64,000 bases of DNA from Petrimonas sp. IBARAKI (GTDB lineage Bacteria > Bacteroidota > Bacteroidia > Bacteroidales > Dysgonomonadaceae), in assembly GCA_002356435.2 (NCBI GenBank), contig AP018040.2, forward strand, positions 2,418,001 to 2,482,000, read 5' to 3'. The translations under genes and the position numbers were made by a program. The number at the start of each line of letters is the position of its first letter. Position 1 is the stretch's first letter. Shown in pieces: positions 42,877 through 46,350 of the stretch. Under the pieces are notes generated by a model, which searched no databases, had not been told where the DNA came from, and worked only from the letters and a program-made list of their open reading frames with translations.

Positions 42877-44850
42877 TTAATTCAACCACGCGATCAACGT
42901 TGAGAGCGACTCCTTGGCGTCGCCCAGCATCAGGTGAACGCCGCTCCTTTTGGTGTAAAGCGGATTCTCCACGCCAGCGTAACCGGGGCTCAGGTCGAAA
43001 TTGCAGATGAAAACCTCCGGGGCCTCATCCACATTCAGCACGGGCATCCCGTAGATGGGGGTATCCACCGCATCGCGGGCGGCCGGGTTGAGCACGTCGT
43101 TGGCGCCGATCACGATCACGGCATCGGTGTCTTTGAAGTCGCCGTTGATCGTATCCATCTCGTAAAGCTGCTCGTAAGGCACGTCGGCCTCCGCCAGCAG
43201 CACGTTCATGTGCCCGGGCATGCGGCCGGCGACGGGATGGATGGCGTAACGCACTTCCGCACCGTTCGTCTCCAGCTTGTCGGCCAGCTGGCGGACCAGG
43301 TGTTGTGCCTGTGCCAGGGCCATTCCGTATCCGGGAACGATGATTACCGACCGGGCATTCCGCAGTTTTTCGGAAGAGTTGACGGCAGCAGGTTCTTCAC
43401 CTGAAGAAGAAGCGGACGGTTCTTTTTTGTCCAGCTCCGAAAGTAAACGGCCGACCGAATCCTTGGCGTCGCCCAGCATCAGGTGAACGCCGTTCCTTTT
43501 GGTGTAAAGCGGGTTCTCCACGCCGGCGTAACCGGGGCTCAGGTCGAAATTGCAGATGAAAACCTCCGGAGCCTCATCCACATTCAGCACGGGCATCCCG
43601 TAGATGGGGGTATCCACCGCATCGCGGGCGGCCGGGTTGAGCACGTCGTTGGCGCCGATCACGATCACGGCATCGGTGTCTTTAAAGTCGCCGTTGATCG
43701 CATCCATCTCGTAAAGCTGTTCGTAAGGCACGTCGGCCTCCGCCAGCAGCACGTTCATGTGCCCGGGCATGCGGCCGGCGACGGGATGGATGGCGTAACG
43801 CACTTCCGCACCGTTCGCCTCCAGCTTGTCGGCCAGCTGGCGTACCAGGTGTTGTGCCTGTGCCAGGGCCATTCCGTATCCGGGAACGATGATCACCGAC
43901 CGGGCATTCCGCAGGATTTCTCCGGCCGACGGCTTACCGGGTTGCTCATCTGGCGTTTCGCTTTTCGGCTCTTCCATTACTGGCTGGGGCTGGACCACTT
44001 TTTTCCCCGAAACGGAGGTTTTCCCGGTTAAAATATCCATCAGGCTGCGGTTCATCGAACGGCACATGATCTGCGTCAGGAATAATCCGGATGCGCCCAC
44101 AATCCCTCCGACCGAAACCAGCAGGATATCGCTGATCGCCATACCGGCAATAGCTCCGGCCACACCGCTCAACGAGTTAAGCAGCGAGATGGTAATGGGC
44201 ATGTCCGCTCCTCCCACGCGGATGGAAAAAGCAAATCCGAAAAGTGCGCTGAATGCGATGCTTATCAACAGAATCAACGCAACGTCCGCAGGCAGGCCAA
44301 ACACGTTTCCCGCAAAAGCGGAATAAACCACGGAAACGGTGAGCACAATCAGGCTGAAGTTCAACACGGCAGCGTGGTTTTTCCAGATTACCGGCCTCTG
44401 GGACAAAAGCTTATGCAGCTTCCCGGCAGCGACCAGGCTACCAACCAGGGTGATAACCCCCACCACTATCGCCAGGACGGCGGTAACGTTGGAAAAGACG
44501 GGAAAATCACTTACCCACTGCCCCACTCCCAGCAACGTCAGGATACCTACCAGGGCAGATGCCAGCCCGCCTACCCCGTTCAGCAAGGCGACCAGCTGCG
44601 GCATCTGGATCATTTTTACACGGACGGCAAACGCACTTCCGATAACAACCCCCACCAACATATAAACGTATATGCTTCCAACAGAAGCAATCCGGTTGTA
44701 AAGCAACGTAACCACAATCCCCGCGAGAACACTGGCTGCACTGATGATGTTGCCCCGGACAGCCGTCTTCACCCGGCTCATCATGGAGATCCCCAACAAA
44801 ACGGTGACGGACAAAACCGCACAAACAACGTAATAAAGAGTGGGTGTCAT
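42877..44850 (-). CDS. pntB: NAD(P) transhydrogenase beta subunit with a duplicated domain III
   Basis: A 657-residue PntB; the usual length is about 460. Residues 1-270 are the membrane domain II with about nine helices. After a linker, domain III (NADP(H)-binding) occurs twice: about 308-475 and 490-657. Each copy has GYGMALAQAQ, HPVAGRMPGHMNVLLAEA, GANDVLNPAA and GYAGVENPL. The two copies are almost identical and are joined by a Ser/Glu-rich linker (KKEPSASSSGEEP). The enzyme couples proton movement to hydride transfer between NAD(H) and NADP(H). The KRS loop of E. coli PntB (FKRSMNTGYAGV) reads CNFDLSPGYAGV in both copies. The start overlaps pntAB by 4 bases. Confidence 0.93.
   Translation of the reverse strand: MTPTLYYVVCAVLSVTVLLGISMMSRVKTAVRGNIISAASVLAGIVVTLLYNRIASVGSIYVYMLVGVVIGSAFAVRVKMIQMPQLVALLNGVGGLASALVGILTLLGVGQWVSDFPVFSNVTAVLAIVVGVITLVGSLVAAGKLHKLLSQRPVIWKNHAAVLNFSLIVLTVSVVYSAFAGNVFGLPADVALILLISIAFSALFGFAFSIRVGGADMPITISLLNSLSGVAGAIAGMAISDILLVSVGGIVGASGLFLTQIMCRSMNRSLMDILTGKTSVSGKKVVQPQPVMEEPKSETPDEQPGKPSAGEILRNARSVIIVPGYGMALAQAQHLVRQLADKLEANGAEVRYAIHPVAGRMPGHMNVLLAEADVPYEQLYEMDAINGDFKDTDAVIVIGANDVLNPAARDAVDTPIYGMPVLNVDEAPEVFICNFDLSPGYAGVENPLYTKRNGVHLMLGDAKDSVGRLLSELDKKEPSASSSGEEPAAVNSSEKLRNARSVIIVPGYGMALAQAQHLVRQLADKLETNGAEVRYAIHPVAGRMPGHMNVLLAEADVPYEQLYEMDTINGDFKDTDAVIVIGANDVLNPAARDAVDTPIYGMPVLNVDEAPEVFICNFDLSPGYAGVENPLYTKRSGVHLMLGDAKESLSTLIAWLN
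42912..43365. repeat. Tandem repeat unit encoding the C-terminal domain III of PntB
   Basis: This 454-base stretch matches 43461-43914 with a period of 549 bases (183 codons, in frame) and about ten mismatches counted by eye. The 95 bases between the two units are unique and encode the interdomain linker. The mismatches argue against a simple assembly artefact. Confidence 0.9.
43461..43914. repeat. Tandem repeat unit encoding the first domain III of PntB
   Basis: Partner of 42912-43365. It encodes the domain III copy nearer the membrane domain (about residues 312-463). Confidence 0.9.
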
Positions 44851-45164
44851 GATGGCCTTTCCTCCTTCTTTTTCTTGTCGAACATCCTAAGCATCCGGTG
44901 TGTAACCCCGAAACCGCCGACAACGTTTACCGTAGCGGCAACAACGGCCAATCCACCCAGGATCTGTCCGGTTATAACGTCCTGCTGCCGGATGGCCGCC
45001 ACCGACAAACCCACCGCGGCTACCGCACCGAGAATGGTAATTCCCGACAGGGCGTTCATCCCCGACATCAGCGGGGTATGCAGCAAGCTCGGCACGTTTT
45101 TGATGATCACGTATCCGACCCCGGTGGCCAATGCAAAAATCACTATCAAAAAAACTGGATTCAT
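44847..45164 (-). CDS. pntAB: NAD(P) transhydrogenase subunit alpha part 2 (membrane)
   Basis: A 105-residue membrane protein with three hydrophobic helices (VFLIVIFALATGVGYVII; TPLMSGMNALSGITILGAVA; QILGGLAVVAATVNVVGGFGV). It corresponds to the C-terminal membrane part of E. coli PntA, encoded separately as in many bacteria. It forms domain II together with PntB. It starts 28 bases after pntAA and overlaps pntB by 4 bases. Confidence 0.93.
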   Translation of the reverse strand: MNPVFLIVIFALATGVGYVIIKNVPSLLHTPLMSGMNALSGITILGAVAAVGLSVAAIRQQDVITGQILGGLAVVAATVNVVGGFGVTHRMLRMFDKKKKEERPS

Positions 45165-45192: not shown

Positions 45193-46350
45193 TCACAATC
45201 CCATCGCTTCACGCGTTCCCTCGTGCACGATCTCGCCCTTATGGGTTACCAGGATAGAACGGACAATTTCATCGTTCAGGTCCAGCGCTATCTCTCCGTC
45301 TTTCGATAAGTATTTCACCAGGTTATAAACGTTTTGAGAGAACATCCAGGTAGAGCTGGTGGGAATTAATCCCGGTATATTCTTGATTCCCTGAACCATC
45401 ACGTTGTGGATCACCTCTTTTCTTCCTGCCGGGGTAACCTCGCAGTTACCGCCCTGATCTATGGAGATATCCACAATCACCGCTCCGTTTTTCATCGATT
45501 CCACCATTTCCCCGGTAATAAGAACCGGCGCCACCTTTCCCGGAATCAACGCGCTGCAGAACACAATGTCCATATCTTTCAGCACACTTGCCAGCACTTC
45601 ACGCTCTTTCGCCAACCACTCCTCGGGGAGCTTTTGCGCATATCCGCCCTTGCCGACCGCCAACTCTTCCGGAATGCCGGTTTCAATGATCCTGGCTCCG
45701 ACGCTTTTGGCCTGTTCGCTGGCAGCAGGACGAATGTCCATGGCGTAAGTCACTGCCCCCAGCCGCTTGGCAGTGGCCAGCGCCTGCAATCCGGCAACAC
45801 CGGCACCGATAACCAGCACGTTGGCAGGCTTAAGCATTCCTACGGCGGTGAACATCTGCGGCATGAATACCGACAGGTCGTCGGCCGCCATGATGATTCC
45901 CTTGTAACCTGCACAAGTACTCATCGAGGTGAGGGCGTCCATGTTTTGAGCGCGCGAGATGCGGGGGATGCTATCGAGTGTGAGGCCGGTCACGCCCCGG
46001 GCGGCCAATTGCTTTACCATGTTGTGGTTTACGGGTGAGGCGGGATGGATGAACGTAATCAGGAACTGCCCCGGATGCATCATCTCCACTTCGTGCTTAC
46101 CCACATTTTCGTTAAAAAGCGGTTCTTTCACTTTCAGGATAAGGTCAGCTCTTTCGAAGAGGTGCTCCGCATCGCCTACCATTTCGGCTCCGGCTTCTCT
46201 ATACTGTTCGTCGTAATAAAGCGATTTTACTCCGGCACCGGCTTCCACAAGCACGGTCATGCCGTCCTGAATAAATTTCTTCACGGTTTCGGGGGTAGCA
46301 GCCACACGAGCTTCTCCCGACATAATTTCTTTGGGAATCCCTACGATCAT
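45193..46350 (-). CDS. pntAA: NAD(P) transhydrogenase subunit alpha part 1 (NAD-binding domain I)
   Basis: A 385-residue soluble domain I, related to alanine dehydrogenase. The first segment MIVGIPKEIMSGEARVAATPETV is typical, and the NAD-binding Rossmann motif lies at about 170-195 (VLVIGAGVAGLQALATAKRLGA). The RQD-type loop region is near the TSMSTCAGY segment (about 140). It binds NAD(H) and docks onto domain III of PntB. First gene of the pnt operon. Confidence 0.94.
   Translation of the reverse strand: MIVGIPKEIMSGEARVAATPETVKKFIQDGMTVLVEAGAGVKSLYYDEQYREAGAEMVGDAEHLFERADLILKVKEPLFNENVGKHEVEMMHPGQFLITFIHPASPVNHNMVKQLAARGVTGLTLDSIPRISRAQNMDALTSMSTCAGYKGIIMAADDLSVFMPQMFTAVGMLKPANVLVIGAGVAGLQALATAKRLGAVTYAMDIRPAASEQAKSVGARIIETGIPEELAVGKGGYAQKLPEEWLAKEREVLASVLKDMDIVFCSALIPGKVAPVLITGEMVESMKNGAVIVDISIDQGGNCEVTPAGRKEVIHNVMVQGIKNIPGLIPTSSTWMFSQNVYNLVKYLSKDGEIALDLNDEIVRSILVTHKGEIVHEGTREAMGL

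What the first reader, a model, noticed from the sequence alone, without database searches (positions are those of the whole stretch)
42877..44850. Tandem, nearly identical duplication of domain III within PntB
Seen: the gene encodes 657 residues, with the NADP(H)-binding domain III present twice in frame. Repeat units 43461-43914 and 42912-43365 have period 549 bases and about ten mismatches by eye, separated by a unique Ser/Glu-rich linker. Known: transhydrogenases work as dimers with one domain III per beta subunit, and the two domain IIIs swing in opposite orientations during turnover. Inference: a beta subunit with two domain IIIs could keep one engaged with domain I and one with the membrane domain, changing coupling or rate, or the extra copy may act as a tethered NADP(H) store. 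I know of no described PntB with this architecture.
Basis: partly seen in the sequence, partly recalled or inferred. Interest (0 to 1): 0.75.

Follow-up and report, generated by a model that had tools for sequence, protein, structure and literature searches.

The report
Transhydrogenase-like pump with repeated carrier domain
A membrane protein gene related to the proton-driven NADPH-making enzyme really does carry its mobile nucleotide-carrying domain twice; the same amplification (2-4 copies) turns out to be widespread in anaerobic bacteria, in a class of complexes that has lost the NADP-recognition motif and carries the catalytic residues of alanine dehydrogenase, so it may be a different, undescribed energy-coupled enzyme.

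Summary
Confirmed. The window's pntB (42877-44850, minus strand, 657 aa) encodes two in-frame domain IIIs (dIII): 454-nt copies, period 549, 10 mismatches, 7 of them synonymous. It is not an assembly artefact: the genome is one contig, a second same-species genome and another species' one-contig genome have the same form, and among 83 distinct related proteins 70 have 2-4 tandem dIIIs (26 two, 35 three, 9 four), in Bacteroidales, Clostridia, Desulfovibrio, Anaerolineaceae and others. I found no description of this in the papers held.

The extra copies look functional: 206 of 210 dIII copies keep all 19 key residues checked, and some pairs are old and differentiated.

With one independent exception, all arrays belong to a sharply separate class. 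Its dIII has N-x-D (210/210) where canonical dIII has K-R-S/G (84/84), the motif that binds NADP. Its partner dI carries alanine dehydrogenase's catalytic residues (K75, H96, D270 in 96/96 versus 0/72 canonical).

Best reading: dIII works as a tandem swinging carrier in a complex that is probably not an ordinary NAD(P) transhydrogenase, and possibly a proton-coupled amino-acid dehydrogenase. The last step is inferred, not shown.

The parts
45193..46350 (-). PntAA (dI), 385 aa. Carries the AlaDH-type residues R15 (46306-46308), K75 (46126-46128), H102 (46045-46047), D298-Q299 (45454-45459), plus the transhydrogenase RQD loop (R130, Q135, D138) and the NAD-ribose Asp D205
   Evidence: Pfam AlaDh_PNT_N/C; class comparison; AF2 pLDDT 93.9, closest folds are R. 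rubrum/E. coli/T. thermophilus dI
44847..45164 (-). PntAB (start of dII), 105 aa; its stop overlaps the pntB start (44847-44850)
   Evidence: Pfam PNTB_4TM; PDB matches to transhydrogenase alpha/alpha2
42877..44850 (-). PntB, 657 aa, with two tandem dIIIs
44052..44844 (-). dII part of PntB, nine predicted TM helices (about aa 3-266)
   Evidence: AF2 model; conserved dII residues D213, S139, N222, G252, R265 in E. coli numbering
43461..43914 (-). dIII copy 1 core (about aa 313-463), NxD motif N434-F435-D436 at 43543-43551
43384..43428 (-). inter-dIII linker (about aa 475-489), Ser/Glu/Ala/Lys-rich, low confidence in the model; no in-frame ATG/GTG/TTG
42912..43365 (-). dIII copy 2 core (about aa 496-646), NxD motif N617-F618-D619 at 42994-43002

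Best explanation
This is a PntAA-PntAB-PntB membrane complex of a divergent class in which only dIII, the swivelling nucleotide-carrying domain, has been multiplied (here twice). Shown from sequence: both copies are intact, fused in frame, joined by a flexible linker and kept nearly identical. Inferred: the copies work in parallel as tethered carriers. While one dIII sits on dII exchanging nucleotide and coupling to the proton, another can sit under dI for hydride transfer, so one dI/dII pair is served by more than one loaded carrier, as tandem lipoyl domains or acyl-carrier domains serve one active site. Shown from sequence: in this class dIII has lost the KRS 2'-phosphate motif (N-x-D instead), and dI carries the AlaDH residues R15, K75, H96 and D270 beside the full transhydrogenase hydride-transfer loop. 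Inferred: dIII most likely carries non-phosphorylated NAD(H), and the redox partner at dI includes an amino/2-oxo acid pair. Hydride would pass amino acid <-> dI-NAD <-> dIII-NAD, coupled to the dII proton pathway; that is a proton-coupled amino-acid (alanine-type) dehydrogenase rather than an NADH:NADP+ transhydrogenase. My confidence by step: duplication real 0.99; extra dIIIs functional parallel carriers 0.75; nucleotide specificity changed 0.7; amino-acid dehydrogenase chemistry about 0.4. The figure given as confidence is for carriers plus changed nucleotide site.
For: Arrays of 2-4 dIIIs in 70 of 83 distinct relatives, each operon otherwise with one PntAA and one PntAB where the flanks reach. 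206/210 dIII copies keep 19 key residues including Y315, H345, R350 and D392. Linkers have median 25 aa and are Ala/Glu/Ser/Lys/Pro-rich, against a 14-19 aa dII-dIII linker in known enzymes (PMC5742237). Copies diverge little within a protein compared with between species: synonymous-codon difference 2.0% within the two-dIII gene of G001 and 4.8% within the window's gene, against 31-35% between them. An old, differentiated pair in Bacillota: 55-62% within a protein, 85-93% for the same copy between species. Two clean classes: N-x-D 210/210 versus KR 84/84, also separated in a dIII tree built without the motif columns. dI: K75/H96/D270 in 96/96 N-x-D partners and 0/72 canonical, R15 in the 87 whose N-terminus is covered; 9 of 12 testable class-specific dI columns match AlaDH against 1 of 7 in the reciprocal control. 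H96 and D270 are essential in M. tuberculosis AlaDH (PMC4691113). AlaDH model score 181-191 bits for N-x-D dI versus 119-135 for two canonical dI. A class-III aminotransferase lies near pntAA in 11, and an Lrp/AsnC regulator just upstream in 6, of 80 N-x-D loci and 0 of 20 canonical loci.
Against: No activity, nucleotide-binding or structural measurement exists. Some N-x-D members have a single dIII (13 of 83), so the array is not required for function. Fold and overall sequence place dI with transhydrogenase, not AlaDH. The neighbours come from a few clades, so the counts are not independent, and the window's own neighbours (fba-like, DUF3467-like, cydAB) do not point to amino acids. The AlaDH residues may be an inherited feature that binds something else. 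NADP(H) could still be bound through other contacts, although no newly conserved Lys/Arg replaces K424/R425 in loop E.
Confidence: 0.6

Rival explanations
1. The complex is an ordinary proton-translocating NAD(P) transhydrogenase; the second dIII adds NADP(H)-binding capacity or changes coupling. NADP(H) is bound despite the missing KRS motif, and the AlaDH-like residues in dI are inherited without function.
For: Same operon, fold and dII residues as known transhydrogenases. RQD loop, NAD Asp, Y315, H345, R350 and D392 retained. A KRS-type PntB with two dIIIs exists (L200), so duplication itself does not require the changed pocket.
Against: KRS lost in 210/210 copies with Asp at the phosphate site and no compensating conserved Lys/Arg. 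Invariant AlaDH residues only in this class.
Confidence: 0.27
2. The array is a neutral by-product of recombination between in-frame repeats; the extra dIII is tolerated but does little.
For: Copy number differs between close relatives (1, 2 or 3 within the genus); copies are nearly identical, as expected of recent unequal crossing-over.
Against: 70 of 83 relatives have more than one dIII; 206/210 copies keep all key residues; old differentiated pairs and position-specific copies persist across species; 7 of the 10 core differences in the window are synonymous.
Confidence: 0.1
3. Assembly or strain artefact.
For: Short-read assemblies handle these arrays badly (N-runs inside L109).
Against: Single-contig genomes G000, G009 and G001 all show two dIIIs; two to four dIIIs in isolate genomes, e.g. 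Porphyromonas circumdentaria ATCC 51356 (4), P. bennonis DSM 23058 (4), P. uenonis (3), Hoylesella marshii DSM 16973 (2), Desulfovibrio sp. ZJ369 (4). Such errors normally collapse repeats rather than make new diverged ones.
Confidence: 0.01
4. The extra dIII is a regulatory or inhibitory domain (for example a NAD(P)(H) sensor) rather than a catalytic carrier.
For: In some lineages the last copy differs from the internal ones (L065 c4, L080 c3).
Against: In the window both copies are equal in all key residues; no sign of loss of the hydride-transfer residues in either copy.
Confidence: 0.08

Closest known systems
Proton-translocating nicotinamide nucleotide transhydrogenase (PntAA/PntAB/PntB; R. 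rubrum, T. thermophilus, E. coli, mitochondrial NNT)
   Same: Gene order, dI/dII/dIII folds, conserved dII residues, dI RQD loop, dIII residues Y315/H345/R350/D392
   Different: Two to four dIIIs per beta subunit; KRS to N-x-D; dI carries AlaDH residues K75/H96/D270, never seen in the canonical sample
Alanine dehydrogenase (M. tuberculosis Ald, T. thermophilus 2eez)
   Same: R15, K75, H96, D270, Q271 and NAD-binding Asp198 equivalents in dI
   Different: AlaDH as known is soluble, without PntAB/PntB; window dI scores 191 bits against a cut-off of 391.85 for the AlaDH family and has the transhydrogenase RQD loop
Tandem acyl-carrier domains of PUFA synthases and tandem lipoyl domains of 2-oxo-acid dehydrogenase E2 (by analogy only)
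   Same: A mobile carrier domain repeated in tandem on flexible linkers to serve fixed active sites; tandem ACPs are beads on a string (PMC3585217, abstract)
   Different: Different fold and chemistry; dIII must also dock on a membrane proton channel

Membership tests
Proton-translocating NAD(P) transhydrogenase | PF02233 PNTB, PF12769 and PF01262/PF05222 domains in one operon | tested here: met
   operon layout
Proton-translocating NAD(P) transhydrogenase | dIII catalytic/nucleotide residues (Y315, H345, R350, D392, GYGMA, GAND, GYAG) | tested here: met
Proton-translocating NAD(P) transhydrogenase | KRS (KR-S/G/T) motif for the NADP 2'-phosphate in dIII | tested here: not met
   NFD in both window copies; class N-x-D 210/210 versus KR 84/84
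Proton-translocating NAD(P) transhydrogenase | One dIII per beta subunit | tested here: not met
   two in the window, 1-4 in the class
Proton-translocating NAD(P) transhydrogenase | dII residues of the proton pathway and the dII-dIII salt bridge (S139, D213, N222, G252, R265) | tested here: met
Proton-translocating NAD(P) transhydrogenase | Channel histidine (E. coli H91-beta or T. thermophilus H42-alpha2) | tested here: inconclusive
   window has N91/S at these positions, but so do 41 of 79 canonical complexes compared
Proton-translocating NAD(P) transhydrogenase | NCBIfam equivalog cut-offs for PntA and PntB | tested here: inconclusive
   PntA 381.7 vs 383, PntB 582.7 vs 689, both missed; but canonical L152 PntB also misses, and multi-dIII proteins gain score by summing domains
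Proton-translocating NAD(P) transhydrogenase | NADH:NADP+ hydride transfer coupled to H+ | not testable with these tools
   needs biochemistry
Alanine dehydrogenase | Active-site residues R15, K75, H96, D270 (MtAld numbering) | tested here: met
   window PntAA R15, K75, H102, D298
Alanine dehydrogenase | Family cut-off TIGR00518 | tested here: not met
   191.0 vs 391.85 bits
Alanine dehydrogenase | Reversible alanine + NAD+ <-> pyruvate + NH4+ + NADH | not testable with these tools
   needs biochemistry
Tandem carrier-domain arrays (analogy) | Two or more intact, near-identical mobile domains on flexible linkers | tested here: met

The most novel reading that the evidence does not exclude
The N-x-D class is a previously undescribed proton-coupled (energy-transducing) amino-acid dehydrogenase built from transhydrogenase parts. 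dI oxidises or forms an amino acid such as alanine with a resident NAD, dIII carries NAD(H) between dI and the membrane domain, and tandem dIIIs raise throughput. It would either use the proton gradient to drive amino-acid oxidation or conserve energy from reductive amination of pyruvate in fermenting anaerobes, and it may preserve the evolutionary step between alanine dehydrogenase and transhydrogenase.
Probability: 0.35. Interest if true: 0.95.

Novelty: new variant of a known kind. Interest (0 to 1): 0.8.

Why it matters
Transhydrogenase is described as having a fixed three-domain architecture with dIII swivelling between two partners; natural enzymes with two, three or four dIIIs are a ready experiment on that open mechanism. 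More broadly, a class shared by gut, oral and anaerobic-digester bacteria is presumably annotated as NADPH-producing transhydrogenase, yet it lacks the NADP-recognition motif and carries alanine-dehydrogenase residues. If its reaction is different, the redox and energy budgets inferred for many anaerobes change, and a new energy-coupling enzyme is added.

Tried and rejected
GC-biased gene conversion as the reason for high GC3 in the window's dIIIs (80% vs 65% in dII): rejected, a single-copy relative shows the same rise, and copy number does not predict it (p = 0.34). Loss of the channel histidine as a class mark: not discriminating. NCBIfam cut-offs as a class test: unreliable because domains sum. 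An apparent insertion inside dIIIs of L109: runs of N, i.e. scaffold gaps. Swapped nucleotide specificity (NADP in dI): rejected, the NAD-ribose Asp is kept in all. All-or-none 'closest copy lies in the same protein' as proof of concerted evolution: only 121 of 192, because very close relatives share orthologous copies; the synonymous comparison is the better evidence. Naming the Desulfovibrio aminotransferase a taurine:pyruvate aminotransferase: not supported by NCBIfam or PDB matches.

Full report
OBSERVATION. The minus-strand ORF 42877-44850 codes for 657 residues. A direct repeat with a 549-nt period lies in its 3' part. Identity ends sharply at both edges. Pfam finds PNTB twice, and the AlphaFold2 model has nine membrane helices, a disordered stretch (278-304), a dIII, a second disordered stretch (476-488) and a second dIII. 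pntAB overlaps pntB by four bases, so dI, PntAB and PntB are one operon and only dIII is over-represented. No in-frame ATG, GTG or TTG lies in the linker (read), so separate translation of the second dIII from there is unlikely.

NOT AN ARTEFACT, NOT UNIQUE. The genome is one contig of 3.69 Mb with a single pntB. A same-species genome (G009) and another species (G001), each a single contig, also have two dIIIs. Two draft genomes of the genus have three and three more, also drafts, have one. Across genome contigs the closest 80 relatives and the family search, after removal of duplicates, give 83 distinct proteins: 13 with one dIII, 26 with two, 35 with three, 9 with four. This set was chosen by similarity to a two-dIII query and is not a frequency estimate. 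Carriers include isolates: Porphyromonas circumdentaria (4), P. bennonis (4), P. uenonis (3), Dysgonomonas (2-3), Parabacteroides spp. (2), Massilibacteroides vaginae (two genes, 2 each), Hoylesella marshii (2), Desulfovibrio sp. ZJ369 (4); and MAGs of Clostridia, Anaerolineaceae, Riflebacteria, Haloplasmataceae. In a Bacteroidales sample of 295 genomes about 71 hold an ordinary single-dIII PntB with an open frame of about 460-500 aa, and about nine hold multi-dIII forms.

EVOLUTION OF THE ARRAY. Synonymous-codon difference between the copies is 4.8% in the window, 6.8% in G009, 2.0% in G001 and 1.3-7.4% in G007, while the same domain differs by 31-57% between G000 and other species of the genus: copies have been homogenised or re-duplicated in each lineage. 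Elsewhere copies are old: four Bacillota (L104, L105, L106, L108) have a pair only 55-62% identical within a protein, yet each position matches its counterpart in the other species at 85-93%. Of 210 distinct dIII copies, 206 keep all 19 key residues tested, and one of the four exceptions is a masked base. So the extra copies are maintained. Linkers have median 25 aa (16-40) and are rich in Ala, Glu, Ser, Lys and Pro.

TWO CLASSES. At the E. [quoted passage not shown] S404 is T in all of the class. A tree of dIII without the three motif columns still separates 210 from 84. No new conserved Lys or Arg appears in loop E; position 428 is K/R in 64% of the class but Ser in the window. All arrays found are in the N-x-D class except one KRS-type PntB with two dIIIs (L200), an independent duplication. 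In 12 N-x-D genomes searched whole there was no other PntB.

THE PARTNER dI. Comparing dI of the two classes, K75, E76, H102, D298, Q299 and others are invariant in 96 of 96 N-x-D partners and rare or absent in 72 canonical ones. Aligned with alanine dehydrogenases whose sequences were confirmed against PDB entries, these are K75, H96 and D270 of M. tuberculosis Ald; with R15 the set is R-K-H-D in 87 (nine more lack the N-terminus) and in no canonical dI. His96 and Asp270 are essential in that enzyme, and Lys75 and Arg15 lie in the same ligand site (PMC4691113). Of 12 testable columns that mark the class, 9 carry the AlaDH residue; of 7 columns that mark the canonical class, 1 does. The NAD-ribose Asp (D205) and the transhydrogenase loop R130/Q135/D138 are kept in both classes. 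By fold and overall similarity dI is still a transhydrogenase dI. With AlaDH as outgroup the canonical dIs form one clade (support 1.0), nearly all N-x-D form another (0.95), and one N-x-D sequence (L206) is sister to the canonical clade with very weak support. N-x-D plus AlaDH residues could therefore be the older state (not resolved).

CONTEXT. Class-III aminotransferases lie near pntAA in 11 of 80 N-x-D loci (on the same strand directly upstream in four Desulfovibrionaceae, divergent in Clostridia), Lrp/AsnC regulators just upstream in six, and a fumarase/aspartase-family gene in three; none of these in 20 canonical loci with flanks of up to 6 kb. The loci are related to one another, so this is suggestive only. 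In the window the neighbours are fba-like, DUF3467-like and cydAB (functions by eye). The window's genome has two other AlaDh_PNT_N proteins; one lacks K/H/D, the other resembles saccharopine dehydrogenase by eye.

MECHANISM. In known enzymes dIII alternates between dII, where nucleotide exchanges, and dI, where hydride is transferred; a dI dimer binds one dIII tightly and a second weakly, and two face-up dIIIs clash (PMC5742237). A tethered reserve of dIIIs would let one be loaded at dII while another reacts at dI. That is inference, supported by the intactness of the copies and their linkers, and analogous to tandem ACPs (PMC3585217, abstract only) and lipoyl domains (own knowledge). The chemistry is less certain. 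If dIII carries NAD(H) and dI also NAD(H), an NADH/NAD+ exchange coupled to protons would only waste the gradient; the AlaDH residues in the same cleft give a way out, an amino/2-oxo-acid couple as the real partner of dI. Both enzymes use the same side of the dI nicotinamide (own knowledge), so dIII and the amino acid would take turns. Direction could be gradient-driven amino-acid oxidation or energy-conserving reductive amination. None of this has been measured.

NOVELTY. The papers held describe no multi-dIII transhydrogenase and no proton-coupled alanine dehydrogenase that my searches could find. Most subscription-journal papers are not in that library, so prior description is not excluded. 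I file the array as a new variant of a known kind; the class as a possible new enzyme is the novel case.

Noticed in passing
L200 (G1183), PntB ORF of 668 aa: A canonical KRS-type PntB with two dIIIs: an independent duplication outside the N-x-D class.
   Followed up: partly
L104, L105, L106, L108: Bacillota PntBs whose two dIIIs are old and differentiated (55-62% identical within a protein, 85-93% per position between species).
   Followed up: partly
L109:5180-7040: N-run scaffold gaps inside a three-dIII array: short-read assemblies break these arrays, so copy numbers in MAGs may be lower bounds.
   Followed up: yes
L006 (G006): A close relative (dII 1.5% different in DNA) has one dIII that differs 5.6-6.4% from both window copies, more than the rest of the gene: recent exchange of the domain, or a collapsed array.
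   Followed up: no
L065 copy 4 and L080 copy 3: The last dIII differs from the internal, homogenised copies and resembles the last copy of the other protein (86%).
   Followed up: no
L061, L062, L064, L066, L068, L075, L110 upstream of pntAA: A conserved gene of about 250 aa without any Pfam match (three examples scanned; one also against NCBIfam) stands between a class-III aminotransferase and the divergent pntAA in these Clostridia.
   Followed up: partly
L197 (G1116): A canonical dII-dIII in a 954-residue open frame (1095 aa in the genome search) that also contains the PntAB-like membrane part, apparently a fusion.
   Followed up: no
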